64,000 nt of DNA. It comes from Sycon ciliatum (taxonomy: Eukaryota > Porifera > Calcarea > Leucosolenida > Sycettidae). Position 1 is the stretch's first letter; every line of letters starts with the position of its first letter. The notes below the pieces were generated by a model that was given only the letters and a program-made list of their open reading frames with translations, made no database searches and was not told where the DNA came from. The DNA lies in contig NC_088645.1 in assembly GCF_964019385.1 (NCBI RefSeq), positions 30,052,088 to 30,116,087 on the forward strand, in the 5' to 3' direction. Below, one piece after another: positions 935 through 64,000 of the stretch. Made by a program: the position numbers and the translations under genes.

Positions 935-1107
935 AGTTTATGATTTCTTGGGGAGGGGTGGGTTCTTGAACTTCCATTCTCGTGCTGTTACATGCTCGGG
1001 CCAGAACTCGTTTTCCAGAACATTTCTTTCGTCTTGCTCAGCAACTGTCAGATGTGCGTACAACGTGCCGTACACTGTTCTGGAGGGGATCAGTCTACAG
1101 CCAGTAA

Positions 1108-1538
1108 GGCTGTGTTTACATGAGGCGTTTCAACCCGGGTTGAGTTCGACCCGGGTCAGATTTCAACCCGCCATGTGCACAAAGTGAATGGCGCGTTTAC
1201 ATGACGCATTGCGCTTGACCCGGGTTGAAATTTCGCCCCGGGTTGATTTCAACCCTCCCCCCAAGGGGAGGGTTGAAACCAACCCGGGTCAAGAAAATCG
1301 TACAAACGTACTTCTGTGCGTATCTCGCGCCAGGTTTGAACAGGACTGCACATGCAAATTTCGCGCGAACGGATTCACGTGACCATACAGGACTCTAGAA
1401 GTGGACTTTTGGCGGCATATCAGTATTTGACCCGGGTCAACTGTCTTCATGTAAACGCTCACCTCTTTTGTCTATCGTACAGACTTTCAACCCGGGCTGA
1501 ACTCGACCCGGGTTGAAATTTCTCATGTAAACACAGCC
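1108..1538. mobile_element. Harbinger-type MITE, copy 1
   Basis: The ends are perfect inverted repeats GGCTGTGTTTACATGA, flanked by TAA on both sides (1105-1107 and 1539-1541). A 3-bp TWA target duplication and a GG(C/G)xxTGTTT-like terminus are the hallmarks of PIF/Harbinger MITEs. The interior has many palindromic blocks built on CCCGGG, in forms AACCCGGGTT and GACCCGGGTC. It has no coding capacity. It is inserted in the RRM part of the LINE ORF1. Confidence 0.85.
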
Positions 1539-1641
1539 TAATACTTCCACATTCTTCTTTCTACAGTACGCAACAAGATCATCAGCACTGCAGTTGATAT
1601 TGATGCCCCCAACGAATACAACTCTGCGTGCTATTTTCTTA

Positions 1642-2076
1642 GGCTGTGTTTACATGAGAAATTTCAACCCGGGTCGAGTTCAGCCCGGGTTGAAAGTCTG
1701 TACGATAGACAAAAGAGGTGAGCGTTTACATGAAGACAGTTGACCCGGGTCAAATACTGATATGCCGCCAAAAAGTCCACTTCTACAGTCCTGTATGGTC
1801 ACGTGAATCCGTTCGCGCGAAATTTGCATCTGCAGTGCTGTTCAAACCTGGCGCGAGATACGCACAGAGGTACATTTGTACGATTTTCTTGACCCGGGTT
1901 GATTTCAACCCTTCCCTTGGGGGGAGGGTTGAAATCAACCCGGGGCGAAATTTCAACCCGGGTGAAGCGCAATGCGTCATGTTAAAAACGCGCCATTCAC
2001 TTTGTGCACATGGCGGGTTGAAATCTGACCCGGGTCGAACTCAACCCGGGTTGAAACGCTTCATGTAAACACAGCC
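1642..2076. mobile_element. Harbinger-type MITE, copy 2 (inverted)
   Basis: Same family as the element at 1108-1538, in opposite orientation and about 100 bp away, flanked by TTA at 1639-1641 and 2077-2079. The two copies match along nearly the whole length with scattered substitutions and small indels. The CCCGGG-centred motifs are conserved in place. Confidence 0.85.
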
Positions 2077-2728
2077 TTACCTCCACGCAGATCTGCGGGC
2101 TTCCTGTGGCGGTTGGCGGCTTCACGTACGATCTACCAGTCGTACTTGGTACTGACAGGCTTGTCAGTAGTACGACTGGCGTTGCTTGTTCGTGGTGCAG
2201 AGAGGGTACGACTAGCGTACGTCTCGCCCGGAGCTGCGGATTCAAGCCCTGTTGGTGCAGATGCGGGTACTGGTACACCCGTGGCGGGAATGTTTGTAGC
2301 TGCTCGGTACGAGTACTCATCCTGGAGGCTGTCGAGGGCGCGATTAGAGACATCGATGGGCTGGTGGTGTTATGTTGTGTCAGGGCGCGAAGCTCCTCCC
2401 TGAGTTCTGCAATGGCGGCATCTTTTCCTTTCTCCTTTTCTAGAGAGATTTTTCGTAGGTCGGAAACTTCTGCTACCAGGTTTCGGACCGTCTCCATCAG
2501 GTCAACCATCATCTTCGTTAGCGCAGTAGCATCAGTACTGGTACATTCACATCCTCCTGCCTGCTTTGTGACCCTGTGTGTGTCGATCTGATCGTCCAGT
2601 GGTTGCAACTTTCACCTCAGGGCGCCTACCAATTGCACTCGGCTCAGGCCGGCCCATTTGACGTTATTGGCCTTTGCCAGTGACTCCAAGCCTTCACTAT
2701 CCAAAATTCCGAAGTCAATGGACGCCAT

Positions 2729-3239: not shown

Positions 3240-5050
3240 GTTATTATTATTATTTAAAAATTCGACGAGGAGACAATAATTTTAATATGGCAATAAGTAG
3301 GACGAGCTGAAGCGACATGTGGACTACTTTATTAACAATGTAAGCGATGGAGACGATGCAAGAAACAACCTAAAGGGTAAGGAAAAATACATGTAAGAAG
3401 AAAAAGGGCAATGGAAAAAAAAAGATGATACGAACAAGTTTTCGTACAACACTCTTCAGGAATCACCGTTGTACTAAAGAACAAAATGAAAACATAGGAA
3501 ATAATATAGCAATCAAGGTAGGGTGACACGATACAATGACAGCACTGGAATATCGAGGTGCGATTTCTCACAAAAGTGTGCAGAAAACAAGGGTATACAA
3601 GTAAGAACTAAGCGTGACAAGTGTGTATCAGCAACAAAAACAAAAAAGTGAGAACGAATGATAATAATAACAATGATAAACAAGAAGGTGACAAAACACA
3701 TTAAGGCACAAGTGGCAACAACGTTGCCACACTACACAACAGAAATTTTATTTGAACAATTTTAGGGTAATAACACTATCTTTCTGGACACACAAATTCG
3801 GCTTATGAATGCGCTGACAAACAGATTCCAAAACTTGTAACTGCAAAAGATAACCATGACGAGCACGGCACAAAACAGAAAAACAGGAATCAGAAAAAGT
3901 ACGACAACAGTCAGTGATTGTATACTGAAGACTTGTTATTACGAGACGGACGCACACAATCCCGACTCACGCGCACACCCTCACACTCACTCTCACCCTC
4001 ACTCAGCTCACCTTCTCCCTCACTGTCCGAATCAGAACCTGCTCCGTCATCCACCGCGGTTTGACTCTCCTCCTCACTTGCATCGTCCTGCGTCTCACCT
4101 TCACCACCCACGCCAACCCTGAATGCCGTTGCCTTCACGTCAGTCGTCGTCCTTTCCGATTGTTTCCTTTGTATTTTTACCGTGAATTCATAGGTCCGGT
4201 TGTAATCTGCTGTAGATCTCCGTGGTCTGTCATTTGCTGCTTTGTTTTGTGGATTAGTTGTCGTTGTTGTTGGATGTGAACTTGGTGTTGTTGTTGGATG
4301 TGAAGCTGGTGTTGTTGTTGCAGCCATGGTTGTTGGTCTTTCTTTTGAATCCAGCTCTGGTTCCGGTGGGACAAATCGACCGCCGCGGGTGCTCCCCACC
4401 AACACAGACCTCGAAGGAGGAGGGTCAGGGGGAGGCAGAGGTGCTGTCACCACTCGAGGCACAGCCCCATGCAAAGCACCCAGAGGCACAGACTTAGGCA
4501 CACCCGAGGGCTGCACCAATGGCGGTTCCGCACGCACCTCCAAAGAGCTGCCAAGCTCCAGCCCGTCCAACACAGATGTCAGAGGGGGAGCGGCAGACAG
4601 CGGCAGGGAACTATCCTGCCGTCTAGGTGATGGGTTTTTCCTAGGCCTCCCGGGTTTGGGCCTCTCAGATTGCGCACTGGGTGGAAGGATGTGAAGTGGA
4701 GTGTGTTGTTTGATACGTGCGTTCATGTGCTGAACAGTCCTACCACCATACCGACTAGCACAATGTCGGCATTCGAAGTTGTAGATAACATGACTGAGGT
4801 GGAGGGTTGGTAGGACGTCCTTCCGCACCGTGAACGCACGCATTGTTGTGAAGACTGGCACAAATAAGTACGACGGACGATAGACTTGACTGCGTGACAC
4901 ACTTTGATCGAGTCCTGCCCCTTCCATGGCAAACATAGATAGACGGGACAGCGAGGTGGACCAAACAGCATCGATTTCGGTTTCTGCTCCATGGACAGAA
5001 ACGTACGCAACAAGAATTCCGGATAGCCATTCTTCAAGAAAACAGATCAA
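3240..5050 (-). mobile_element. Penelope-like element, 5'-truncated copy A
   Basis: Contains the 3' coding part (GIY-YIG domain and acidic tail) and about 650 bp of AT-rich 3' UTR. The 3' terminus lies against a TTA tract. The same 3' end recurs at 7703-8550 (plus), 22330-22950 (minus) and 22951-23700 (plus). The reverse transcriptase that should precede the endonuclease is absent, so the copy is 5'-truncated near 5050. Confidence 0.75.
3911..5050 (-). pseudogene. Penelope-like GIY-YIG endonuclease end of RT protein
   Basis: Open frame of 379 codons. The key block is DVLPTLHLSHVIYNFEC followed by RHCASRYGGRT and ARIKQH, which is the usual layout of the GIY-YIG nuclease at the C-terminus of Penelope RTs: VIY for GIY, a CxxC pair, YGG for YIG, and RIKQH. 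Upstream, the linker between RT and nuclease is better read in another frame (PVYLCLPWKGQDSIKV, about 4880-4990), so a frameshift lies near 4860. Downstream, a Pro/Ser-rich region of about 130 residues and a Thr/His-rich stretch lead to a very acidic segment (DSDSEGEGELSEGESECEG) and a basic tail. The nuclease nicks DNA for target-primed synthesis. The Ile to Gly change in YIG, the frameshift and the missing RT indicate an inactive copy. Confidence 0.72.
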
Positions 5051-5993
<943 letters not shown>

Positions 5994-7702: not shown

Positions 7703-8550
7703 ACAGGGTTGGCGTGGGTGGTGAAGGTGAGACGCAGGACGATGCAAGTGAGGAGGAGAGTCAAACCGCGGTGGATGACGGAGCAGGTTCTGATTCGGAC
7801 AGTGAGGGAGAAGGTGAGCTGAGTGAGGGTGAGAGTGAGTGTGAGGGTGTGCGCGTGAGTCGAGATTGTGTGCGTCCGTCTCGTAATAACAAGTCTTCAG
7901 TATACAATCATTTGGTTTCTCGTACTGACTGTTGTCGTACTTATTCTGATTCCTGTTTTTCTGTTTTGTGCCGTGCTCGTCATTGTTATCTTTTGCAGTT
8001 ACAAGTTTTGGAAGCTGTTTGTCAGCGCATTCATAAGCCGAATTTGTGTGTCCAGAAAGATAGTGTTATTACCCTAAAATTGTTCAAATAATGTTCTGTT
8101 GTGTAGTGTGGCAACGTTGTTGCCACTTGTGCCTAAATGTGTTTTGTCACCTTCTTGTTTATTATTGTTATTATTATCATTCGTTCTCACTTTTTTGTTT
8201 TTGTTGCTGATACACACTTGTCACGCTTAGTTCTTACTTGTATACCCTTGTTTTCTGCACACTTTTGTGAGAAATCGCACCTCGATATTCCAGTGCTGTC
8301 ATTGTATCGTGTCACCCTACCTTGATTGCTATATTATTTCCTTTGTTCTCATTTTGTTCTTTAGTACAACGGTGATTCCTGAAGAGTGTTGTACGAAAAC
8401 TTGTTCGAATCATCTTTTTTTTCCATTGCCCTTTTTCTTCTTACATGTATTTTTCCTTACCCTTTAGGTTGTTTCTTGCATCGTCTCCATCGCTTACATT
8501 GTTAATAAAGTAGTCCACATGTCGCTTCAGCTCGTCCTACTTATTGCCAT
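7703..8550 (+). mobile_element. Penelope-like element, 3' end copy B
   Basis: Plus-strand copy, 5'-truncated just upstream of the acidic tail region: GVGGEGETQDDASEEESQ is shared with copy A. The reading frame here runs to 8091, ending SVITLKLFK, and is about 55 residues longer than in copy A. Copy A lacks about 14 bp after the VYNH codons and meets a stop there. The 3' UTR is nearly identical to copy A. The end at about 8540 runs straight into a TTA tract shared with the next LINE. Copies A and B are inverted relative to each other, 2.65 kb apart. Confidence 0.75.
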
Positions 8551-8576
8551 ATTATTATTATTATTATTTTTTCTTA
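8551..8576. repeat. (TTA)n tract joining two retroelement 3' ends
   Basis: Short ATT/TTA repeat. The plus-strand Penelope copy ends on its left side and the minus-strand LINE ends on its right side, so two independent retroelements share one microsatellite as terminus. Confidence 0.7.
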
Positions 8577-22329: not shown

Positions 22330-22950
22330 TATTATTATTATTTTAATATGGCAATAAGTAGGACGAGCTGAAGCGACATGTGGACTACTTTATTAACAAT
22401 GTAAGCGATGGAGACGATGCAAGAAACAACCTAAAGGGTAAGGAAAAATACATGTAAGAAGAAAAAGGGCAATGGAAAAAAAAAAAAGATGATTCGAACA
22501 AGTTTTCGTACAACACTCTTCAGGAATCACCGTTGTACTAAAGAACAAAATGAGAACAAAGGAAATAATATAGCAATCAAGGTAGGGTGACACGATACAA
22601 TGACAGCACTAGAATATCGAGGTGCGATTTCTCACAAAAGTGTGCAGAAAACAAGGGTATACAAGTAAGAACTAAGCGTGACAAGTGTGTATCAGCAACA
22701 AAAAACAAAAAAGTGAGAACGAATGATAATAATAACAATAATAAACAAGAAGGTGACAAAACACATTTAGGCACAAGTGGCAACAACGTTGCCACACTAC
22801 ACAACAGAACATTATTTGAACAATTTTAAGGTAATAACACTATCTTTCTGGACACACAAATTCGGCTTATGAATGCGCTGACAAACAGCTTCCAAAACTT
22901 GTAACTGCAAAAGATAACCATGACGAGCACGGCACAAAACAGAAAAACAG
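22330..22950 (-). mobile_element. Penelope-like 3' end, copy C
   Basis: 3' UTR and the last codons of the Penelope-like element on the minus strand, 5'-truncated at about 22950. It is nearly identical to 3280-3890. It forms an inverted repeat with copy D, with only a short central segment between them. Confidence 0.75.
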
Positions 22951-23744
22951 TCGAGAGTCGAGATTGTGTGCGTCCGTCTCGTAATAACAAGTCTTCAGTA
23001 TACAATCATTTGGTTTCTAGTACTGACTGTTGTCGTACTTATTCTGATTCCTGTTTTTCTGTTTTGTGCCGTGCTCGTCATGGTTATCTTTTGCAGTTAC
23101 AAGTTTTGGAAGCTGTTTGTCAGCGCATTCATAAGCCGAATTTGTGTGTCCAGAAAGATAGTGTTATTACCTTAAAATTGTTCAAATAATGTTCTGTTGT
23201 GTAGTGTGGCAACGTTGTTGCCACTTGTGCCTAAATGTGTTTTGTCACCTTCTTGTTTATTATTGTTATTATTATCATTCGTTCTCACTTTTTTGTTTTT
23301 TGTTGCTGATACACACTTGTCACGCTTAGTTCTTACTTGTATACCCTTGTTTTCTGCACACTTTTGTGAGAAATCGCACCTCGATATTCTAGTGCTGTCA
23401 TTGTATCGTGTCACCCTACCTTGATTGCTATATTATTTCCTTTGTTCTCATTTTGTTCTTTAGTACAACGGTGATTCCTGAAGAGTGTTGTACGAAAACT
23501 TGTTCGAATCATCTTTTTTTTTTTTCCATTGCCCTTTTTCTTCTTACATGTATTTTTCCTTACCCTTTAGGTTGTTTCTTGCATCGTCTCCATCGCTTAC
23601 ATTGTTAATAAAGTAGTCCACATGTCGCTTCAGCTCGTCCTACTTATTGCCATATTAAAATTATTGTCTCCTCGTCGAATTTTTAAATTATTATTATTAT
23701 TTATTAAATTTTTAATAGCCCTTCGAGCCTTGTATGTAATCGTT
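22951..23744 (+). mobile_element. Penelope-like 3' end, copy D
   Basis: Plus-strand copy beginning near the codons SRDCVRPSRNNKSSVYNH and running through the 3' UTR to about 23690, with a terminal TTA-rich tract. It is head-to-head with copy C; both are inserted inside the 53-bp minisatellite. It retains the longer C-terminus (to KLFK) seen in copy B. Confidence 0.75.
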
Positions 23745-30906: not shown

Positions 30907-30948
30907 AATACAAGAAGCGCGCTTTCCCCAGACAGTTGTGTGGTTATG

Positions 30949-33290
30949 GGGCTGTTAAGTGATGACGTCACAGTTCCTTCGATACGCATAGCAACGATCC
31001 CACTGAGGACAAACAAAAGTAGCGCCGTCTCCACCGAACCAGTTGTCAGTGGCAACATATAGGAATCGTGTACATTTCTTCGTTTCTTCTTTGCTGTTTT
31101 CAGTGAGTGTTTTGTTTTCTCTTTGTCCTTGATCTCGACGGTGTTGTCGTGCTCATTACCTTACTGAGACGTCTCTTGTGACTGTAGCCAGTGTCACGGA
31201 GGATTTTATTGGCGTGACGAGGTAGATCGCCGAGATCGAGCGTGAAAAACGCTCTGCATTAGTAGCTCCTGTAGAATGTCTTCTGGGATGGCGTGTCCAT
31301 GGTCAACAAAGCCAAGGTGCAAGACAGCATAAGAGATCGTGTAAACGATGTGAACTCCAATAGGTAAGCTCCTGAACAAGTGGAAAGATAATTATGTGTA
31401 TTTACAAACTCTCTCTTCATCCATCGATTGCAGCTATGCATTGCGTTTTGTCTTCACAGATAATCTGGACAAATAAATTATATTGTAACTGGAGAGTGCA
31501 ATCGTGCTTGGGACCCATCCCAATGTCATCACATGGCTGTGGTGACTAGTGTATACTTGGGAGAGTTTTTCCTCAACTGAGACGGAGTGTAGGTGGATGG
31601 ATTATGAGAAATGCGAAGATGTGGAGTAAGTTGTGTCGAAGAAATGTGTAATAAAATAAAATTTACTTTACACTCAAACATACACTGTACATGTACATGT
31701 AACATCATGATAATGATTCCATCTTCATATCTCCGCAACAGGTACGCCATACGCACCGAATACTTGGTGTGTGTGTGTGCACGCGCGCGCTGCGTGCACG
31801 CGTACATGCACACACTCCCATGCGTGGCCGAGTTGGCCGGATGAACAGACCACGCATTTGCACGAGGTGTCCGTCATGTCATTGGAATGCTGTACTTTAT
31901 CACTTTATTCCAAAATAGTATGTCTTGCCCCTGTGAAATGGAGTTTGTGTCTATGCTCAGCGGGTATCGTGCCATGACGCCACACTGCAGTCCGCGCTGG
32001 AAATAAAATAGCACTTCATGGATTATTTTAACTAATTTCCTTTGTGTTTACTTTGTTGAGCCCGTGGTTTCATTTCTGTGTTCTGTTATGATTGGCCTCT
32101 GGAAATAATCGGAGTGGATGTCATTTTTGTCATATGTGTGTATCTTGTGCAACAGGTTCAAGGCTAGATGCACTTCACATTCGGCGTGCGATCTCGGCGT
32201 CTGGGACCTGATAACGTCTTAGTTGGATGGATAATCATAATCAAGGCTGATACTACTCGGCACACCAATGTACATGTCAATGTAATTTTTACTTTTTCAG
32301 AGCTGCACTATTTACGTCTTGCCTGCTTTCCTTGGTACTAGCGTGTTTCCCCCGGATTATTTCATTTCTGTGTTCTGACATGATTGGTCTCTGGAAATCA
32401 TCAGAGTGGATGTCATTTTGCCATATATGTGTGCCTTGTGCGACAGGTTCAAGACTAGATGCACTTCACATTCGGCGTGCGATCTCAGCGTCTGGGACCT
32501 GATGAAGTCTTGGTTGGATGATTATTCAAGCCTGATACCACTCGACACACCAATGTTCATGTCAATGTAATTTTTTCAGAGCTGCACAATTTACGTGTTG
32601 ATGCTTACTTCGGTGTTAGCGTGTTTCCCCCGGATTGTTTCTATCATCATGATCGTGTGTTCTTGGGCCGAGCGAGCACATGCACAAGTGTGCAGCTATA
32701 ACCCTGTGTATCTTTGGTTACACTTTGTTCTGCAATGCATGTACCTTGTAACATTATGTGCTTGCACTGCTTTGTCTGGCCTGCGTATTTCAGGACTATT
32801 CAGTGCATTAGACCCAGGTTGGTTTGGTTGCCGGATGATCTCTTGTTGCGTCGCTCTGTGTTTTGTATTCATCAATTTTTGGGCTTGAGAATTGAGCTGT
32901 TGTGTGGTTCCCAATATGAAAACATCATGCTGGTGCTCTGTGATTCGATTATCGACAGTCGGAGCAGTCATGCATTTATTAGCAGAACGGTCAATACTGT
33001 AGTCTTTTCACGTGTTAGTCTTTTTTTGTGTTTTCGCCGGGGTATTAGCGGTAACGTTGCACACAGAACGGCAGTGTTGCATCACTGGACGACCCTGCCT
33101 CTGCATCTGACTTAATTTCCCCAGGATCTGGTGCAGTTACACCAGACAGCCACTTCCTGTAAACACGCAAACAGCAAAAGAAGAGATCCCGCAAATCAGG
33201 AAAAACACATTATAGAAAATATAGAATAGATCATACAACATTCAATAATCTGGAGTAATTACAGTGAGACAAACACTTCAAACAGTGCTC

Positions 33291-33360
<70 letters not shown>

Positions 33361-33777
33361 CATCCTTCCAAAAATACCCTATGACAATTCCCTAGAATTA
33401 TTTTATTTTATATTCTTAGGACATCATTCTGAACATAATAAATTCTTCCATGGGTCTTCAATCACCACGGAGGGCGAAAATATATCTAAGTCATGCAGTT
33501 TACGGGAGGTGCGAGCTGTCATGGATATAGAGGCTGATATTGTGCCAGCGTGAGGGCAGAGACAGAAAGAAGACACTGATTTCTTGAACAACTCACCTAT
33601 ATATAATCGAATCCACAAGGAGCGCTCATACTTTGATCCATCAGGACGCGAAACATCTTCAAAGCACTCTCAAACACGGAGTTTTACTGTGGGTAGCCAA
33701 TTTCACAGCCATCATGAAGGCACTCGCCGACTACAGGAGTTTTGTAGAGAAAAGAACAAGGAGTAAAGAGCGACAAC
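30949..33777 (+). repeat. Left arm of the palindrome
   Basis: Noncoding to the eye. Contains a (TC)n tract at 33290-33357 and an internal direct duplication (32085-32340 and 32360-32600) where the right arm has only one copy. Near the inner end a short frame (33584-33766) is conserved in the right arm too (YNRIHKERSYFDPSGRE), but with substitutions in both. Confidence 0.75.
32085..32600. repeat. Internal direct duplication of about 270 bp in left arm
   Basis: Both copies contain TTTCATTTCTGTGTTCTG, GAGTGGATGTCATTTT, CACTTCACATTCGGCGTGCG and GTGTTTCCCCCGGATT. The right arm carries one copy (39730-40010) plus about 400 bp of different sequence (39320-39730). Confidence 0.7.
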
Positions 33778-33788
33778 GATAAGTAAAC

Positions 33789-34907
33789 ATGTCGAGTGCA
33801 GTTAAGAGTTTTCTGAAGCGAGTAACCTCACCACCCCATGCTGGTCGTGGGAGGGTAGGATCTTCTAAAAGTCCGTGTAGTCCAGACGTCATACCAGGAA
33901 CACCCCTGCAGGACATGGGACGAGCAGCTGGTCGTAAAGCCAAAGCAGCGAGCCCGACCGAAAGTTTATTAATGGAGGACCAGCTTTCGAGCGACACGGT
34001 CACAGTACGGCCAATTGCCGTGACGAAAACTGCTCGCCTGCCGGACAAATCTGCCATACCTACACCTTCAGCCGGCACAGTCCCTTTGGACAAAGTGATG
34101 CATTTTCTAACAACGTTTGCCAAGGAGTTTCGGGAGGACATGGCGACCACCACGAAGCAACTACTGACAGCGTTTGACAAGCGCCTGTCCAGTGTCGAGG
34201 ATCGTCTTGCCAATGCTGAGCGAGAATTAAAAGAGCTCCGCACCTCAAACAAGAAACTAGCAAGTGAAGTTTCCCGGTGTGTTTCAGGGACCTCATTGAC
34301 TGGTGGAATGTCGTCTGGCGGGGAATCCGCCATTTCCGGCATCAAGAAGGATGTTGCCAAGCTGTCTGCTAGACTTGGGGACGTCATTGCACAGTCGACA
34401 CCAAATTTGGCACATTCTTGCATTCAGGAGCAGGCTGAGCATGTGGCTCGCGCGGATAACGTCATTCTGCGATGCGTGCCAGAAAATGTTGCGGAAACAT
34501 CTTCCCAGCTGGTGCAGACAGTACACGGACTGATCCCAAATGGGCTCAACCCCCAGGATGTGCTCAGCGCCGAGAGACTGGGCAAACCGAGAGATCGTAG
34601 ATCTATGGCCAATGGCAATGAGTCATCACGACCGAACAAACCCCGCCTGGTTCGCGTCCGGCTGTCAAGAGCAGGCAAAGATCACCTGATGCGCAATAAA
34701 CATCAGGCAGCGCTTGGCGACACACAGGTTTACGTTGCACATGATCTTACCCGTGATGAGCAGAGTAAACGCAACGATGTGTGGCCTACGTTCCGTAAGC
34801 TCAGGGAGCACAACATTCGCTGTACGCTTCCTAGGTATACTATCATGCTGAAGGGGAAAGCAATGACTGATGAGGAGATCGCTCAGGTCTTATCCCGATC
34901 TGCGTAG
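33789..34907 (+). CDS. LINE ORF1 protein, intact, L1-ORF1 type
   Basis: 372 codons without interruption, starting MSSAVKSFLKRVTSPPHAGR. Residues 1-95 are basic and Ser/Pro-rich. Residues about 96-165 form a coiled coil (MHFLTTFAKEFREDM, RLSSVEDRLANAERELKELR). A second short heptad region follows near 180-205 (IKKDVAKLSARLGDVI). The RRM-like domain begins at ADNVILRCVPENVAE (about 224) and includes VLSAERLGK and PRLVRVRLSRAGKDHLM. The C-terminal domain has VYVAHDLTRDEQSKRNDVWP and a final TIMLKGKAMTDEEIAQVL. This is the arrangement of Transposase_22/L1 ORF1p RNA chaperones, though ORF2 resembles CR1/L2-like LINEs. ORF2 begins 16 bp after the stop. It is the best preserved coding sequence in the window. 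Confidence 0.82.
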   Translation: MSSAVKSFLKRVTSPPHAGRGRVGSSKSPCSPDVIPGTPLQDMGRAAGRKAKAASPTESLLMEDQLSSDTVTVRPIAVTKTARLPDKSAIPTPSAGTVPLDKVMHFLTTFAKEFREDMATTTKQLLTAFDKRLSSVEDRLANAERELKELRTSNKKLASEVSRCVSGTSLTGGMSSGGESAISGIKKDVAKLSARLGDVIAQSTPNLAHSCIQEQAEHVARADNVILRCVPENVAETSSQLVQTVHGLIPNGLNPQDVLSAERLGKPRDRRSMANGNESSRPNKPRLVRVRLSRAGKDHLMRNKHQAALGDTQVYVAHDLTRDEQSKRNDVWPTFRKLREHNIRCTLPRYTIMLKGKAMTDEEIAQVLSRSA

Positions 34908-34922
34908 GGGTGCGACGGTGGT

Positions 34923-37900
34923 TTGGCAGCGGACATGGTGGGCCCGGACACAGTGAACAGCTGTCGCGTGCGCGCTTTGCCCAATTCAAGGTGTACATCA
35001 GCCCTGAATGACGATGACGATGCATCCGTAGTTCCGGTACGTACATGTAGATCTACGTGCATGTCTCTCAATATCTGCCACATTAATATATGCAGCATTA
35101 GGAACAAGCTTTTATATATACATGACTTAATCGTTACACATACATTGGACATTTTATGCATTACTGAAACTTGGCTGGATGCGTGGATCGCGGACTCGAC
35201 GATTTCACGGCCTGGTTTTGAACTCATTCGACGGGACAGATGTGGAGGAAAGGGAGGAGGTGGTGTACTGCTGTATGTTCGAAGAACAATACGGATGGGT
35301 TTCGTTCACTTAAGCCCACATGATAGCGAGCTTGAGGCAGCGAGTGTGGTACTAGAGTTCCGCAGACCCGGACGCATCACGTGGTGCCTGCCTATAGTTT
35401 GTGTGTACCGACCCCCGTCGTCAAGAGTAGGATTCTGGGAACAGTTTACTAGCTATATTGATGCTATGCATTCTAGGAGATCTAAATGTAGACTGTTTAT
35501 CCGATCCACTTCCTTCCCACTTCAGAGATATGTGTGCTGCCCACAATTTTCGTAATGTAGTGGCTGAGCCAACCAGATTCCGTTCCACGTCTTGTTTGGA
35601 TGTAATCTGCATTACTAGCGATATCACTGCTGTTAATGTGAATGTCATCCCAGATCCCATTAGTGATCACTTTGCTGTAAAGGCTTGTCTTGAAATAGGA
35701 AGCCAGGTGGACAGACCACAACGTATCCGTGTCAGAACTCGAAAGAAGCCTCTCTCCACACTTGACTTTGAAGAGATGTCAGAAAGAATTGGTTCAGCCC
35801 TCACGGAGACTGGAAACAAAATCACCGCTGACACTACTGTTGATGACCTTGCAGACAAATGGCATGGCAGCATTAATGATGTCCTGGACGAGCTAGATCC
35901 ACATGTAGTGAAAAACATTCAACTGATTAAACGATCGCCAAAGCCATGGATTACTCGACAACTTAGGTCTCTCCTTGCACGGCGACAGTACCTCCACCGT
36001 CGAGTCAGAAAGAAAGGATCAAACGATCCTGCCCTTTTAGAAGAATACCGTCGGGTGCGGCGGGAAGGAACGCTATTTAACAGACGTCTCCGCTCCAGGT
36101 ATTACCAGAATGAATTTATGTCGGTGAAGAAACAGCCCCGGAACCAATGGGTCCTGATGAATGCATTGCTCCGCAGAAAGGCTAAGGACAGTGGTGAAGG
36201 AATCGACCACAAAGGAGTCTCACAGGTTTTCCAACAAATTGTCACTGATCCTGATAGGTTGCCACTTCTCTGTCTATTCGGTCCACATCGCCAGCCGTCA
36301 ATGTTATCCATACCGCAGCCTACAGTCACCAACATCTTGAAGATTCTTCGCACTCTGAACGTGCACAAGGCTCCGGGGCCGGACAGAATACCCTCGATCC
36401 TGTTTAAGAATTGCCATGAAGTTCTAGCAGGCTCACTGTGTGCAATATTCAAGGCATCCATTGAGGAGAGCAAGTTTCCAGCTTTGTTCAAACACGCATC
36501 CGTCAGAGCCCTTTTCAAAGGCGGAGACTGCTCAGAGCCGACAAACTTCCGACCCGTCTTTCTCTTGCCCATTGCTAGTAAGGTCCTCGAGAAGCATGTA
36601 TATCGCCAGCTTACTCACCTCCTACTGGAGAACCCCACCATCATCCCGCCACAACAATTTGCGTACAGACGGCATCATTCATCGACAGCTGGCAAAGGGA
36701 TCTCGATTCGAAGAAGGTCGTTGGCGTCGTTCTCGCAGATGTGAGGAAGGCGTTCGACAGCGTCAACCATCAGCTGCTACTGAACGAACTTTTTAATTGT
36801 GGAGTTGGTGATGCGGCTTTGGCATGGTTCAAAGATTACCTGAGTGACAGGACACAGCAGCTCATAGCGCCGGACAATCTGATTCGTGCATCGTGCAGCC
36901 AAGGAGTGCCGCAGGGGTCTGTGTTGGGCCCAGTGCTATTCAGCATTTACGTAAGAGGCCTTCCTGGATGTGTGAGTGCCTCATCTGTACTTCAGTTCGC
37001 TGACGACGTTAACATGTATGCGGCTGGTGACACTACTGAAGAAGTCGTGGACAAATTGAACGGCGATCTTATTAAGTTATCGGATTATCTGAAAGGAAAG
37101 CGAATGAAATTAAATCCGGCTAAAACGAAGTTCATACTGCTCCACCGCAAGACCACCGATGTCCCGATGTCTGCCTATGTCACCATTGATGGTGTCGTTT
37201 TCCCCGCACGCAGTCTGCTCGTTACTTGGGTATTGTACTTGACGAAAACTTGACTTTTGGCCCACAAATAGACAACCTTGTAGGCTCTGTCAACAGGAAA
37301 CTTGGTGCATACCGCTTATCCCGCCATCTTCTGCCATACCATGCTCGGCGTACCTTCTATTTAAGTGTCATTCAGTCAACCTTGGAGTTTTTTTTTTTTT
37401 TTTTTTTTTTTTCTACAAAATCCACATATCTCCAGACACTGGGGTGAATGATGGAGTGTGGTGGTGGGGCCCATTAAGCTCCGCCGACCAGAGGTCTCGG
37501 CTTCATAGCTCCATGGACGCACCAAGCAAGCAGCGCTTATATCCATTCCCTAAGTTCTACGAACTATGATAAGTATGTCCGTTTGTTCAATAGATCCCTC
37601 AGAATAGTATTTGGTTTTGATAAGTTTACCAGTGCTTCACACATTCTTAGCCTTTACAGCTTTTATCATATTTCGGTGCGCGTCAATTTGAAATTGTTCA
37701 TTCTGTTGTTCCGGTGCATCCATAGCGGAACATGCAGCTCTTTGCTTCAAGAAATCTTTACCAGCCGCTGCTGTAGCTCTCACACCACTGCCACTACGAG
37801 ATCCCAGGTGTCTTTTTCTTTGGCATTACCCCCAGCACAGAGTACGGCTGGCTTTTCTCGGATTGGCTATCTCGCTGCTGACCGGTGGAATATGCTGCCT

Positions 37901-37984
37901 TCCACTGTTCGTACTTGTACCGATTACCGCTCATTTATTCGCTCATGCATAACCTTCTTAGGGGCTCCCGTAAGAAGACCATAG
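34923..37984 (+). pseudogene. LINE ORF2: endonuclease + RT, three breaks
   Basis: The EEP domain opens with MSLNICHINICSIRNKLLYI, then ILCITETWLDAWI (catalytic Glu), GGGGVLLYVRR and VCVYRPPSSRVGFW. A frameshift near 35460-35480 leads to CILGDLNVDCLSD (GDLN active site), DVICITSD and PDPISDHFAVKA (SDH). RT motifs follow: KAPGPDRIPSILFKN, TNFRPVFLLPIASKVLE, and, after a second frameshift near 36690-36740, MRKAFDSVNHQLL, SQGVPQGSVLGPVLF and catalytic QFADDVNMY. A third frameshift near 37230 leads to GIVLDENLTFGPQID and LSVIQSTLEF. There a poly-T-headed insertion (37388-37565) interrupts it; the C-terminal part resumes about 37583 and ends near 37984 with AADRWNMLPSTVRTC. Inactive. Confidence 0.85.
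37388..37565 (-). mobile_element. Poly-A retroposon (LINE4-type 3' end) in ORF2
   Basis: Starts on the plus strand with about 25 T, and contains GCCGACCAGAGGTCTCGGCT, the stem also found at 48750 and 51490. It interrupts ORF2 after the codons for STLE. Read on the minus strand it is a short retroposon with a poly-A tail, probably a 5'-truncated copy related to the LINE at 48597-52430. Confidence 0.7.
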
Positions 37985-38034
37985 GTCTGTGGGAAACACC
38001 CTAGTAAAATAAAATTTAATAATAATAATAATAA

Positions 38035-38268
38035 TCGCTTGAAGAAAAAGCAAAGAAAAACAACTGTCTCTCCAGTCATTTAGATGCTGTTGCCCTTGAC
38101 ATCTGGTTCCATCCAGAGGACGCGACTTTTGTTTGTCCCCAGTGCTCTCCGTTGCTCCGTTGACAAACAAAAGTCGCGTCCTCTGGATGGAACCAGTTGT
38201 GAAGGGCAACAGCATCTAAATGACTGTGGAGAGAGAGCAGTTTTTCTTTGCTTTTTCTTCAAGCGATT
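38035..38268. repeat. Centre of the palindrome
   Basis: Two arms of about 105 bp (GCTTGAAGAAAAAGCAAAGA ... GGACGCGACTTTTGTTTGTC) in inverse orientation around a short spacer CCCAGTGCTCTCCGTTGCTC. The arm end is a diverged copy of the outer end of the large arms. Confidence 0.85.
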
Positions 38269-41188
38269 GTTGTCGCTCTGTACTCCTTGTTCTTTCCTCT
38301 ACAAATCTCCTGTAGTCGTCGAGGGCCTTCATAATGGCTGTGAAATTGGCTGCCCACTGTAAAACTGCGTTTTTGAGAGTGCTTTGAAGATTCTTCGCCT
38401 CCTAATGGATCAAAGTACGAGCGCTCCCTGTGGATTCGATTATATGTAGGTGAGTTGTTCAAGAAATCAGTGTCTTCTTTCTGTCTCTGCCCTCACGCTG
38501 GCACAATATCAGCCTCTATATCCATAACAGCCCGCACCTCCCCCCGTAGACTGCATGACTTAGCTGTATTCTCGCCCTCCGTGGTGATTGAAGACCCGTG
38601 GAAGAAGTTGTTCAGAATGATGTCCTGAGAATATAAAATAAATAATTCCAGGGAATTGTTACAGGGTATTTTGGAAGGATGGAGAGAGAGAAAGAGAGCA
38701 CTGTTTGAAGTGTTTGTCTCACTGAAATTACTCCAGATTATTGAATGGTGTATGACCTACTCGATATTTTCCGCAATGGTTTTTCCTGATTTGCGGGATC
38801 TCTTCTTTTGCTGTTTGCGTGTTTACAGGAAGTGACTGTCTGGTGTATCTGCACCAGATCCTGGGGAAATGAAGTCAGATGCAGAGGCAGGGTCGTCCAG
38901 TGATGCAACACTGCCGTTCTATGTGCAACGTCACCGCTAATGATCCCCCGGCGAAAACACAAACACGTGAAGAGACTACAGTATTGACCGTTCTGGTAAT
39001 GAATCGTGACTGCTCGGACAGTCGATAATCGAAACACAGAGCACCAGCATGATGTTTTCATATTGGGAACCACACACCAGCTCAATTCTCAAGCCGAAAA
39101 AATTGATGAATACAAAACACAGAGCGACGCAACAAGATATCATCCGGCAACCAAACCAACCTGGGTCTGATGCACTGAATAGTCTGTCTGCTGCACAGAC
39201 TGTTACAAGGTACATGCATTGCAGAACAAAGTGTAACCAAAGATACACAGGGTTATAGCTGCACACTCGTGCATGTGCTCGCTCAGCCCAAGAACACGCA
39301 GGATGATAGAAATAATCCGGGGGAAACAGGCTAATGTCATGACCGGGGAGTGGGCCAGACATACTCTCAGGATTCTGCAATTCCAGGTTATTTACGGAAA
39401 TATACCGGGAGTCCAGATACCCATTCCTCACCCTCACCACACAAGAAGATCAAAGCTTCACTCTAGGACCAAGCTCAAACAACAGAGATAAAGAAGCAAG
39501 AAGAACAACAACAACCAGCGATCGATGCAAAGCATCGAGCTATATACTACAAGACCTAGTAGCGTGCACTGCGCGGAGCGAGCGAGTAGCCAGCAAAGCA
39601 TGAATAGTGATAGGTTTCACAACACTATTGATCGACAAGACACATCGCCGCCACGGCAAACACTTCATAAAGACACATGTATAAGCAGACTGAATACAAT
39701 ACAGATAATGACATTGTAGCAACACACGGACACGACACTAGCACCGCAGTAAGCATCAAGACGTAAATAGTGCAGCTCTGAAAAAGTAAAAACTACATTG
39801 ACATGTACATTGGTGTGCCGAGTAGTATCATCCTTGATTACCCATCCAACCAAGACGTTATCAGGTCCCAGACGCCGAGATCCTACGCCGAATTTGAAGT
39901 GCATCTAGCCTTGAACCTGTTGCACAAGGCACACACATATGACAAAAAAATGACATCCACTCCGATTATTTCCAGAGGCCATTCATAACAGAACACAGAA
40001 ATGAAACCACGGGCTCAACAAAGTAAACGCAAAGGAAATTAGTTAAAATAATCCATGAAGTGCTATTTTAATTCCAGCGCTGACTGCAGTGTGGCGTCAT
40101 GGCCCGATACCCGCTGAGCATAGACACAAACTCCATTTGACAGGGGCACGACATACTATTAGAATAAAGTCTGAGTCATAAAGTACAGCACTCCAATGAC
40201 ATGACGGACACCTCGTGCAAATGCGTGGTCTGTTCATCCGGCCAACTCGGCCACGCATGAGAGTGTGTGCATGTACGCTCGCACGCAAGCGCGCGCGTGC
40301 ACACACACCTTGTACTCAGTGCGTATGGCGTACCTGTTGCGCAGATAATGAAGATGGAATCATTATCATGATGTTACATGTACATGTACAGTGTATGTTT
40401 GAGTGTAAAGTAAATTTTATTTTATTCCCGTAGCTATGCAGAAGACGTTACTTCAGTAACGTCTGGCACTAGCCAGGGTCCACACAGCTTTTTATTTCTT
40501 CGACACAACTTACTCCACATCTTCGCATTTCTCATAATCCATCCACTTACGCTCCGTCTCAGTTGAGGAAAAACTCACCCAGGTATACACTAGTCACCAC
40601 AGCCATGTGATGACATTGGGATGGGTCCCAAGCACGATTGCACTCTCCAGTTACAATATAATTTTATTTGTCCAGATTATCTGTGAAGACAAAATGCAAT
40701 GCATAGCGGCAATCGATGGATGAAGAGAGAGTTTGTAAATACTTATATCTTTCCACTTGTTCAGGAGCTTACCTTTTGGAGTTCACATCGTTTACACGAT
40801 CTCTTATGCTGTCTTGCACCTTGGCTTTGTTGGCCATGGATACGCCATCCCAGAAGACATTCTACAGGAGCTACTAATGCATAGCGTTTTTCACGCTCGA
40901 TCTCGGCGATCTACCTCGTCACGCCAATAAAATCCTCCGTGACACTGGCTACAGTCACAAGAGACGTCTCAGTAAGGTTATGAGCACGACAACGCCGTCG
41001 AGATCAAGGACAAAGAGAAAACAAAACACTCACTGAAAACAGCAAAGAAGAAACGAAGAAATGTACACGATTCCTATATGTTGCCACTGACAACTGGTTC
41101 GGTGGAGACGACGCTACTTTTGTTTGTCCCCAGTGGGATCGTTGCTATGCGTATCGAAGGAACTGTGACGTCATCACTTAACAGCCCC
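38269..41188 (-). repeat. Right arm of the palindrome
   Basis: Inverse copy of the left arm with several differences: a 400-bp segment at 39320-39730 replacing one of the left arm's tandem copies, and a 55-65-bp insertion at 40436-40491. No transposase-like ORF. Confidence 0.75.
40430..40491. mobile_element. Short hairpin repeat, Helitron-end-like
   Basis: TTCCCGTAGCTATGCAGAAG, then the palindrome AGACGTTACTTCAGTAACGT(CT), then GGCACTAGCCAGGGTCCACA and CAGCTTT. The left arm lacks it. The same sequence is at 63919-63986. A hairpin followed a few bases later by CTAG resembles a Helitron 3' terminus, but the sequence continues beyond CTAG in both copies. Confidence 0.5.
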
Positions 41189-41190
41189 AT

Positions 41191-44425: not shown

Positions 44426-45036
44426 CGAAGTGATACAGGTGCTTCCACTGCACCCTGTGGCGCATCAGGGAGGCATCTGGGGCCCAGGCAGCCCGCCCAT
44501 AAGCGCACCACCGTATCAGGTATGCGCACATTGCGCAGGTGGAGCAGCAGAGTAGGGCTTGGCGGATAATGCCGGCAGATTGGCAGAATTCGGTACTTTT
44601 TCTGGTAAGTTTCATGCATGTTTGGTATGAGGATAAAGAAATGGAGCGGAATTCGAGGAATTGCCTGCCATAAGGTTTGTATGGTTCTGCCAATTTCGGT
44701 GCAAAAAAGCAGAATCTGCCACCTTTTCGAGCATTATCCGCCAAGGCCTACAGCAGAGCAAGATGTGTGCCGGACACCCGGCGGTACCCACCATCATCCG
44801 GTCGACTTCATGGTTGTGCGACTTTACACAGCCAGCACTCATTACTTGCTATTGCTTGCAGAAGGCCAGATTTTTTTCTTTTTTCGCTCTTTCCCTTCAT
44901 ACGTGCCTTTGTAGGCACGGCTTCATGTTGGAGCAGTAAATAGCAGTTAGGAACTCTTCTGAGTCAAGCTGGACTCAGCATGTCAAGTTTGGCATAATAC
45001 AAGAAACGCGCTATCCCCAAACAGTTGCGTGGTTAT
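44275..45036 (-). mobile_element. Gypsy 5' leader region
   Basis: Noncoding internal region between the 5' LTR remnant and pol, shared with units at 20036, 30390, 45170, 48384 and 53780. It includes GGTGGAGCAGCAGAGCAAG, TCATGGTTGTGCGAC and CAAGCTGGACTCAGC. Adjacent to the LTR it reads ATAACCACGCAACTG on the minus strand; a tRNA primer site starting TGG is not evident. A hAT MITE interrupts it at 44553-44750. Confidence 0.75.
44553..44750. mobile_element. hAT-type MITE, copy 2
   Basis: Inverted relative to the copy at 19232. Ends TAGGGCTTGGCGGATAATGC and GCATTATCCGCCAAGGCCTA; exact 8-bp duplications CAGCAGAG at 44545-44552 and 44751-44758. The empty site (GGAGCAGCAGAGCAAG) is present in the sister gypsy units. 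Confidence 0.93.
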
Positions 45037-53604: not shown

Positions 53605-54369
53605 TGTGTGGTTATTGTGTGAGTGTATATGCAGGAGTCCGCGGTCACGAGGGGGAGTGATAAATGGAAGTTTCCGGAGGAGGAAGGAGGAAACTGTAGT
53701 TATCACCAACCCTCACCGCACCCAGCTCACGCCGCTACGGCGTGCGACCTGAGCTGGGCGCCCTGCCGTGCAGTATGGAACTGTCCTCAAGCCAGTCACG
53801 TATTTGGCAGCCCAGTGAGCTGTCTACCGGATCCCAGCGTTTAGAAGCGCCAAATGCGGCAGGCCCAGTCTCAGGCTGGTCGCGTAGGCGGCGGGCGACG
53901 GCAAGGCTGCATTCGCATTTGGATCACCGAAGTGATACAGGTGCTTCGACTGCACCCCGTGGCGCATCAGGGAGGCATCTGGGGCCCAGGCAGCCCGCCG
54001 TAAGCGCACCACCGTATAATTAAGGTATGCGCAGGTGGAGCAGCAGAGCAAGATGTGTGCCGGACACCCGGCGGTACCCACCATCATCCGGTCGACTTCA
54101 TGGTTGTGCGACTTTACACAGCCGGCACTCATTACTTGCTATTGCTTGCAGAAGGCCAGAATTTTGTTTTGTTTTCGCTCTTTCGCTTCCTCCAGGCACG
54201 GCTTCATGTTAGAGCAGTAAATAGCAGTCAGGAACTCATCTGAGTCAAGCTGGACTCAGCGTGTCAAGTTTGGCATAATACAAGAAGCGCGCTATCCCTA
54301 AACAGTTGTGTGGTTATTGTGTGAGTGTATATGCAGGAGTCCGCGGTCACGAGGGGGGGGGAGTGATAA
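53605..54369 (-). mobile_element. Third gypsy unit (deleted) and start of a fourth LTR
   Basis: 53605-53615 (TGTGTGGTTAT) is the leader end of the unit broken at 48596. The LTR piece starts at 53616, followed by the deletion junction (CTCACGCCGCTACGGCGTGC), the leader 53780-54317, and then the next LTR piece 54318-54369, cut by a MITE. The full deleted unit is 702 bp and has no coding capacity. Confidence 0.85.
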
Positions 54370-60952: not shown

Positions 60953-61158
60953 GTTTCACTCGTGCCAGGCCACGAGTTCCCAATTAACTGTGGGCCGCAG
61001 CACGGGATGAGGCCCACGTAGATTGGCAAAATTTCCTTGTCAGTTTTGTGCGATTTTGTAGCACTCGATGACTATATTTGATTTAATTTATTTTAATCAT
61101 AACTCGTAACATTTTGTCCTTTGTTTTTATCCATGATTACTTTAACTCAACATCCGAG

Positions 61159-62132
61159 TTCAAATCTATTAGCTAGATGCACCTTATTATCTAATTATTT
61201 CACTTTTCTTACTAGTTCCTTCCCATCTTCGTACATTTTCTTTTTCAATTCCTCCATTGTTCGTAATCTTTCTGTTCCATATTCAATGAAAAATCCGTCA
61301 TTTATGAACGACCCGAAGACCACATTCTATGATTCATGATTCAGATGACCTAGACTAAAAAACATCACCGCGTCATTGGTTTTATCAAGAGTACATAACC
61401 CCCAGAGTGTGCAACGCCTGATCCAGCTCTGCATTGGGTCTTGGTCGATCGTAATTGGATCTTCTGATGTCATGCGTGCACTCCATACCAGCGCAAGGCC
61501 GGTCTCGAGGCAAGGCACCATTGTTTTTAATCCGAGAGTACCCGTGACTCCCCGGGTTCCGCTCAGACGCCTAGTGTACGGTATTATGACGCAAAGATCC
61601 GATTACGCTCGACCAAGACCCTATGCAGAGCTGGACCAGGTGTTGTTCAAATCTATTAGCTAGATGCACCTTATTATCTAATTATTTCACTTTTCTTACT
61701 AGTTCCTTCCCATCTTCGTACATTTTCTTTTTCAATTCCTCCATTGTTCGTAATCTTTCTGTTCCATATTCAATGAAAAATCCGTCATTTATGAACGACC
61801 CGAAGACCACATTCTATGATTCATGATTCAGATGACCTAGACTAAAAAACATCACCGCGTCATTGGTTTTATCAAGAGTACATAACCCCCAGAGTGTGCA
61901 ACGCCTGATCCAGCTCTGCATTGGGTCTTGGTCGATCGTAATTGGATCTTCTGATGTCATGCGTGCACTCCATACCAGCGCAAGGCCGGTCTCGAGGCAA
62001 GGCACCATTGTTTTTAATCCGAGAGTACCCGTGACTCCCCGGGTTCCGCTCAGACGCCTAGTGTACGGTATTATGACGCAAAGATCCGATTACGCTCGAC
62101 CAAGACCCTATGCAGAGCTGGACCAGGCGTTG
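61159..62132. repeat. Recent 487-bp tandem duplication
   Basis: 61159-61645 and 61646-62132 appear identical except for a few bases. The breakpoint cuts through a MITE, leaving a truncated copy in unit 1 and a complete one crossing the end of unit 2. Confidence 0.92.
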
Positions 62133-62985: not shown

Positions 62986-63918
62986 TGTGCGTGCCCCCTC
63001 TGGAAGCACTGTACATACGCAGTTTGAAGCCAGAGCTATGTCGACAAAAAAAGCATATCAAGGTGATGTGGCTGTTCAAGTCGCAAGCGGACTGATAACT
63101 TTATCACGTGTTCATTCTGGTACTGCAATCCCTTCATGTGTGGTTTGCCACAATTCTCCACCGCTTCATACGTTCTTGTGGTAGTGTGAACTTGAGCTGG
63201 GTAAGAATGTCCTTGCTGATTCTGCACCCCAAGTGTAAATTCTGGCTTCATTTTCTTTATCCCTCACTTTCTTTTTCTGTTTCTCTTTCTCTCTCTGTCC
63301 GTCCATCTGTTCATCTGTATTTCTGCCTGTATGTCTGTCTCTCTCTCTGTCTCTTTCTCCTTTGTCTGCCGGTATATATGAGCATACCCACTATCTCTAG
63401 ATAAATACCGGTACAATTACAAATAACCGACGTAGAGTGGCAAATGGGGTGCATTATTCCCTGCCCCGACTACTTCTGACGAAGCAGTCTGCAACCTTAT
63501 TACAGTATACATGGGAAACAAATGCTGCATGAACTGATCACATGTACTCTGTCATAAACTCATGGGTTTTCTTACCTCCAGTTGGAGTCATTAAGCATTC
63601 ATCTCTGTCATAGAAATATGTTTCCTACAGAACATATTGATCAAGTACACAGAAAATGACAAAACTGGAACTGAATAAAACTGGAAGAGACATACTCAAC
63701 AATAGCAGCAGAATAATGGCATGCGAGTAACACAATTATCTGAAAACTCCAATACATATATAGCACAATAATAATGACATGGAGTGAGATGGTGGTTAAG
63801 GCACACCTGGCGGTAAACACATTCAAGCCTACACAACGCTCTCTAAGCTGAAAACTTTTAAAAAGGTATGAGAGTATGGCGATATAGATGTGTACCTGCA
63901 GGCACGACAGAGGCTTTA
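62981..63918. other. No recognisable gene
   Basis: CT-rich tract about 63270-63365; otherwise only chance ORFs. Confidence 0.45.
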
Positions 63919-64000
63919 ATTCCCGTAGCTATGCAGAAGACGTTACTTCAGTAACGTCTGGCGCTAGCCAGGGTCCACACAGCTTTAATTCCCGTAGCTA
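63919..64000. mobile_element. Short hairpin repeat, tandem start at window edge
   Basis: TTCCCGTAGCTATGCAGAAG, the palindrome AGACGTTACTTCAGTAACGT, GGCGCTAGCCAGGGTCCACA and CAGCTTT; the next TTCCCGTAGCTA begins again 66 bp later at the window end. Same repeat as 40430-40491. Confidence 0.6.

What the first reader, a model, noticed from the sequence alone, without database searches (positions are those of the whole stretch)
30949..41188. Giant palindrome made of two fused TIR units, inserted at a 2-bp AT duplication
Two arms of about 2.9 kb are inverse copies meeting at a centre near 38150. A motif of about 60 bp found near the outer ends recurs, inverted, at the centre, so each arm has the ends of its own TIR element and the whole looks like a tail-to-tail dimer that transposed as a unit. 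Removing it restores the gypsy leader/LTR junction with one AT. No transposase is recognised. A 2-bp AT duplication with GGGGCTGTTAAG ends does not match a family I can name with confidence.
Basis: partly seen in the sequence, partly recalled or inferred. Interest (0 to 1): 0.78.

Follow-up and report, generated by a model that had tools for sequence, protein, structure and literature searches.

The report
Two transposons landed side by side
What looks like one giant palindromic mobile element is most likely two ordinary 3-kb DNA transposons of different subfamilies sitting back to back at a site this family hits repeatedly, with their touching ends lost and a LINE later dropped into one of them.

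Summary
The palindrome is real: 30948-41188, flanked by AT, with empty paralogous sites at 45035, 53614 and 54316. It is not a palindromic element. A ~4.25-kb LINE (about 33781-38032), not mentioned in the finding, splits the left arm. In the window's own 538-Mb genome, relatives are single elements of mostly 2.6-3.6 kb with ~110-bp TIRs and AT on both sides. Of 20 fetched copies, 18 stand alone and two abut 5'-5'; none has the window's arrangement. The arms are of different subfamilies: the right is A-type at 192 of 193 diagnostic sites; the left's inner half is L024-like at 57 of 74, the right at 0 of 74. The centre junction occurs once in the genome. Best explanation: two elements inserted side by side, 3' to 3', sharing one AT; about 103 bp of the palindromic junction was lost, leaving a 5-nt filler. 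Four intact shared-AT pairs exist in the genome. The target AT is a hotspot: 8 exact filled right junctions against 229 empty sites. Ends and AT resemble non-autonomous ISL2EU elements, but no transposase could be linked, so membership is unproven. Moderate interest, mainly for the hotspot.

The parts
30946..30947 (.). left AT of the 2-bp target duplication
   Evidence: empty paralogues carry one AT
30948..33780 (+). left element, first part (5' TIR outermost); inner half close to the L024 lineage
30948..31057 (+). 5' TIR of the left element (GGGGCTGTTAAG...)
32068..32641 (+). tandem duplication of about 290 bp in the left element, not in the right
33781..38032 (+). LINE inserted in the left element, AAT-repeat tail; boundaries approximate
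   Evidence: point uninterrupted in 20 of 20 fetched copies
33783..34907 (+). LINE ORF1 (374 aa, stop to stop)
   Evidence: only a weak Pfam match below cut-off
34908..35555 (+). LINE endonuclease frame (Exo_endo_phos)
36582..37253 (+). LINE reverse transcriptase frame (RVT_1); ORF2 is split over frames
38033..38156 (+). left element, second part: broken 3' TIR ending ...CTCTCCGTTGCT
   Evidence: 38030-38156 is 99.2% identical to the C4 pair
38157..38161 (.). 5-nt filler CCGTT; with its neighbours makes CTCCGTTG twice (38147-38162)
38162..41188 (-). right element, A subfamily, 3' TIR broken at GACAAAC, 5' TIR outermost at 41188
40420..40491 (+). 72-nt stretch, mostly an insertion in the right element, 97% identical to 63915-63986
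41079..41188 (-). 5' TIR of the right element
41189..41190 (.). right AT of the target duplication
45035..45036 (.). paralogous empty site (one AT)
53614..53615 (.). paralogous empty site (one AT); left similarity short
54316..54317 (.). paralogous empty site (one AT)

Best explanation
Two separate non-autonomous TIR transposons of one ISL2EU-like family, from different subfamilies, inserted at the same favoured AT in a ~700-bp gypsy-associated repeat: the second went into the AT next to the first in the opposite orientation, giving AT-[left, 5' to 3']-AT-[right, 3' to 5']-AT. The two abutting 3' TIRs formed a near-perfect palindrome; about 103 bp there (41 of the left, the AT, 60 of the right) was lost, with a 5-nt filler, as in end-joining repair. 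A LINE then inserted into the left element. Shown: two subfamilies, AT flanks, empty sites, a centre found once in the genome, broken inner TIRs, LINE insertion, intact shared-AT pairs elsewhere. Inferred: the order of events, the intact intermediate here, the repair route, and a PHIS-type transposase supplied in trans.
For: Fetched copies: 20 of the 40 non-window matches, all picked by their 5' 352 bp. 18 of 20 stand alone in the fetched stretch, 2 (L023, L024) abut 5'-5', 0 of 20 has the window's 3'-3' arrangement; 19 of 20 show the 3' TIR, L022 runs into N. Right arm A-like at 192 of 193 A/B sites; left inner half L024-like at 57 of 74 sites, right arm 0 of 74. Right arm 97.9% to the A consensus, left arm 90.9%. 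Centre junction once in the genome, control 0. Four intact pairs joined through one AT, control 0, three direct and one 5'-5'; about 0.002 to 0.02 expected by random insertion for an assumed 200 to 600 insertions. Hotspot: 8 exact right junctions filled against 229 empty sites within 1 mismatch. The pair at C4:9681124 lies at this hotspot; the pair at C3:27811656 probably does too, since an exact hotspot junction lies 2.85 kb downstream (the stretch between was not fetched).
Against: No intact 3'-3' pair was found, so the exact precursor is not seen. Two insertions at separate nearby ATs with a larger deletion would look similar. The outer 700 bp of the arms are more alike (97.7%) than the inner parts (92.5%), so some later exchange between arms is possible. 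The left arm's outer part is not L024-like (4 of 227 sites; L024 aligns poorly there), so the left element may itself be a recombinant.
Confidence: 0.82

Rival explanations
1. A tail-to-tail dimer that arose elsewhere and transposed here as one unit by its two outer 5' ends.
For: Outer ends are intact and flanked by one AT each; two outward TIR ends are in principle a substrate for transposase.
Against: Centre junction found once in 538 Mb with up to 3 mismatches; 0 of 20 fetched relatives has this arrangement; four intact pairs share one AT, as two insertions would leave.
Confidence: 0.09
2. Inverted duplication of one element: fold-back replication or abortive gap repair in which both broken ends copied the same element.
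For: Short 24-nt asymmetric centre and templated-looking filler.
Against: The arms are not copies of each other: right A-type at 192 of 193 sites, left inner half L024-like at 57 of 74; different structure in the middle.
Confidence: 0.03
3. Foldback-type family with very long TIRs.
For: 3-kb inverse arms at this locus; the C4 pair also gives inverse arms.
Against: 18 of 20 fetched relatives are single elements with TIRs of about 110 bp, and the C4 pair is two whole elements with their own ends.
Confidence: 0.01
4. Assembly join or haplotype artefact.
For: The same assembly does hold one suspicious inverted duplication with a run of N (L021 and L022 share the same 5' flank).
Against: Arms differ by about 6% and by subfamily, a LINE lies in one only, flanks match a target used elsewhere, no N in the window.
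Confidence: 0.04

Closest known systems
ISL2EU group of the PHIS (PIF/Harbinger-ISL2EU-Spy) superfamily (PMC4482050, passages seen)
   Same: AT duplication; TIR begins GG; TIR length (about 110 bp, reported range 6-259); the genome holds many DDE_Tnp_4 genes
   Different: no transposase or YqaJ frame recognised in the element; the reported A before and T after the AT only weakly seen (17 sites); no gene-bearing copy with these ends found
Adjacent or multimeric insertions of TIR elements into their own target duplication (recalled; searches gave listings only)
   Same: a second element lands in the duplicated target next to the first, so neighbours share one target copy
   Different: here the inner ends of the pair are deleted and one neighbour carries a LINE
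Foldback / Galileo-type long-TIR transposons (search listing only)
   Same: long inverse arms at this one locus
   Different: fetched family members are single elements with short TIRs

Membership tests
ISL2EU (PHIS) | AT target duplication | tested here: met
   AT on both sides in 19 of 19 copies with both ends readable and three empty sites with one AT; the palindromic AT cannot separate this from a no-TSD insertion between A and T
ISL2EU (PHIS) | TIR begins GG | tested here: met
   GGGGCTGTTAAG at both ends
ISL2EU (PHIS) | TIR length 6-259 bp | tested here: met
   about 110 bp, mostly 84-86% identical
ISL2EU (PHIS) | target A|AT|T | tested here: inconclusive
   17 sites read both ways: A at -1 in 14 of 34, T in 11 of 34; window site is T|AT|T
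ISL2EU (PHIS) | DDE/THAP transposase and YqaJ ORF in the element or in a partner with the same ends | tested here: not met
   no Pfam match above cut-off in 10 frames of the arms and 7 of single copies; 0 of 38 paired intervals (from the first 100 of 419 ends) holds any of the 46 DDE_Tnp_4 matches on C1, C2 and C3 up to 23.5 Mb, of 150 scored from 809 candidates; the YqaJ search did not complete (last try)
Foldback (long-TIR) elements | long inverse arms in family members | tested here: not met
   18 of 20 fetched copies have none; L023 and L024 are two whole elements abutting 5'-5'
Mobile inverted dimer | same centre at more than one site | tested here: not met
   one place in the genome

The most novel reading that the evidence does not exclude
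The transposase of this family recognises one AT in a gypsy-associated ~700-bp repeat as a landing pad, and because half of that site survives beside the first insertion, it lands there again, so direct and inverted pairs build up at the pad and inverted ones collapse into large palindromes.
Probability: 0.45. Interest if true: 0.5.

Novelty: new member of a known kind. Interest (0 to 1): 0.36.

Why it matters
It shows how a striking giant palindrome can arise from ordinary steps: two hits on a hotspot, loss of an unstable centre, and a later LINE. The hotspot (8 exact filled right junctions against 229 empty sites) is a tractable case of a DNA transposon favouring one dinucleotide inside another repeat, and of pairs being built by repeated insertion.

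Tried and rejected
Rejected: fold-back or gap-repair duplication (arms are of different subfamilies); mobile dimer; foldback family. The gradient of arm identity from the ends to the centre was first taken as a sign of conversion; the fetched copies were chosen by their 5' 352 bp, so their own 5' similarity is biased and no conclusion is drawn from it. Nothing found: exact ends in viral contigs and genome contigs, where records of the window's own genome may be left out; Rfam at gathering scores and tRNA genes; protein relatives of the 3' frame of a single element. Terminal motif in papers: eight papers listed, by title none on this element; only the listing seen. Host not identified: the LINE ORF1 search gave two unnamed ENA proteins. 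A transposase gene at C11 close to one pair lies about 0.6 kb outside the element. Weak Pfam matches below the cut-offs in single copies (best E 0.0077) were not pursued. Papers: PMC4482050 and PMC9179366 seen as passages; others only as search listings.

Full report
Observation. The inverse arms are real: 445 nt at 98% at the outer ends and a chain of inverted blocks down to a centre near 38150, 94.3% identical over 2728 aligned positions. The ends are GGGGCTGTTAAG...CTTAACAGCCCC at 30948 and 41188 with AT outside each. Three paralogous empty sites in the window read GGTT-AT-TGTG with a single AT (45035, 53614, 54316), though the left similarity at 53614 is only about 14 bp. Since AT is its own complement, an insertion without duplication between A and T would leave the same letters.

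What the finding does not mention. Between about 33781 and 38032 the left arm is interrupted by a LINE with ORF1, an endonuclease frame (Exo_endo_phos, E 7.2e-08), an RT frame (RVT_1, E 2.7e-21) and an AAT-repeat tail. In 20 of 20 fetched relatives the same point is uninterrupted. Without it each arm is about 3 kb.

The family. The window is C3:30052088-30116087 of a 538-Mb genome in 313 contigs. The terminal 352 bp has 41 listed matches (553 candidates, 40 scored, as the call states), all but one at 99-100%. I fetched 20 of the 40 that are not the window, with 300 bp beyond the 5' end and 10 kb in all. 18 of 20 stand alone in that stretch; L023 and L024 abut each other 5' to 5'; L021 and L022 share the same 5' flank and face a run of N. 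None has the window's arrangement. 19 of 20 show the opposite TIR, and L022 runs into N. TIRs are about 110 bp, mostly at 84-86%. The exact end ATGGGGCTGTTAAGTG occurs 419 times, control 0. Of the first 100 listed, 76 form 38 facing pairs within 25 kb and 24 stay unpaired; 28 of 38 pairs span 2.62-3.6 kb, the other 10 span 4.3-20 kb and were not read, apart from L028.

The two arms are different elements. I grouped copies by the structure seen. An A group (9 copies) and a B group (4 copies) differ at 193 fixed sites: the right arm has the A state at 192, the B state at 1; the left arm has A at 39, B at 61, neither at 93. At sites where L024 differs from A and B, in left-arm positions 1400-2836, the left arm has the L024 state at 57 of 74 and the right arm at 0 of 74; in the outer 1400 positions the left arm has it at only 4 of 227, most of these in a stretch where L024 aligns poorly. 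Four copies with large inserts were left out of the alignment (L010, L012, L015, L028), and L022 and L023 were aligned but not used in this count. Right arm to A consensus 97.9%, left arm 90.9%; left arm to B consensus 92.1%. So the palindrome is not one element copied back on itself.

The centre. Normal 3' ends read GTCCCCAGTGCTCTCCGTTGCTATGCGTATCG...CAGCCCC. The left element is intact to ...CCGTTGCT (38156), then CCGTT, then the right element from GACAAAC (38162). If the two once abutted through one AT, 41 + 2 + 60 bp are missing; CTCCGTTG stands twice in a row. This looks like end-joining with a templated filler (inference). The 30-nt junction, allowing 3 mismatches, occurs once in the genome with control 0. 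A dimer that had spread would be found more often; a dimer that moved only once cannot be excluded.

Precedents for abutting elements. The 30-nt shared-AT junction occurs at 4 places, all exact, control 0: three direct pairs and one 5'-5' pair. Random insertion would give about 0.002-0.02 such pairs for an assumed 200-600 insertions (the AT density of the window was used for the genome). The 5'-5' pair at C4:9681124 sits in the same gypsy-associated junction as the window dimer. The pair at C3:27811656 probably ends at it too: an exact hotspot junction lies 2.85 kb downstream, but the stretch between was not fetched. The outer flanks of the other two pairs were not read on both sides.

Hotspot. 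Element end plus TGTGTGAG is exact at 8 places (11 with up to 2 mismatches); GTGTGGTT plus element end is exact at 4 (5 with up to 2); empty sites within 1 mismatch number 229, control 0, often about 700 bp apart. Expected by chance about 0.001-0.004. Not all 8 need be independent: three lie within 300 kb on C3, and copies of the repeat could carry an insertion along. Of the 4 with both flanks, two have the 5' end and two the 3' end at the left flank; within each class the elements are 96.6% and 94.7% alike over the aligned part of 1200 bp, so at least two, probably four, insertions are independent. The 17 ordinary sites give only a weak consensus around AT (about ACWATWGT); the hotspot matches its right half.

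Transposase. No Pfam match above cut-off was found in 10 frames of the arms or 7 frames of single copies. The genome has many DDE_Tnp_4 genes (150 scored of 809 candidates; of 14 control genomes 1 rang), but none of the 46 that lie on C1, C2 and C3 up to 23.5 Mb falls inside any of the 38 element intervals there; the nearest is 1.5 kb outside. The YqaJ search did not complete. AT duplication, GG start and TIR length agree with ISL2EU as described in PMC4482050 (passages); the A|AT|T preference is not clear. I call the family ISL2EU-like and leave membership open.

Verdict. A real but composite structure: two single elements at a hotspot, damaged junction, later LINE.

Noticed in passing
GTGTGGTT-AT-TGTGTGAG, e.g. 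window 54304-54327: One AT in a gypsy-associated ~700-bp repeat is hit repeatedly by this family: 8 exact filled right junctions against 229 empty sites.
   Followed up: partly
window 1104-2080: Another near-complete palindrome, 92% over 985 bp, with TAAGGCTGTGTTTACATG ends; probably a separate TIR element.
   Followed up: partly
window 22337-23664: Inverse repeat, 96% over 1340 bp, with related copies at 3275-4121 and 7704-8562; the nearby frame 3911-5107 looks Penelope-like from memory, without a Pfam match.
   Followed up: partly
window 61158-62132: Direct tandem duplication of 488 bp at 99.8%.
   Followed up: no
C4:23298507-23316404 (L021, L022): Two copies facing each other with the same 5' flank and runs of N: likely assembly duplication or a large inverted repeat.
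   Followed up: no
genome G000: Many open DDE_Tnp_4 frames in several size classes (about 491, 499, 566, 587, 663 and 816 codons), which suggests recent PHIS activity.
   Followed up: no
L012-L014, L017-L019, L021-L023, L025-L027: These 12 A-type copies carry an extra ~310-360 bp that both window arms lack at the same point, so the right element may branch off before it or have lost it.
   Followed up: partly
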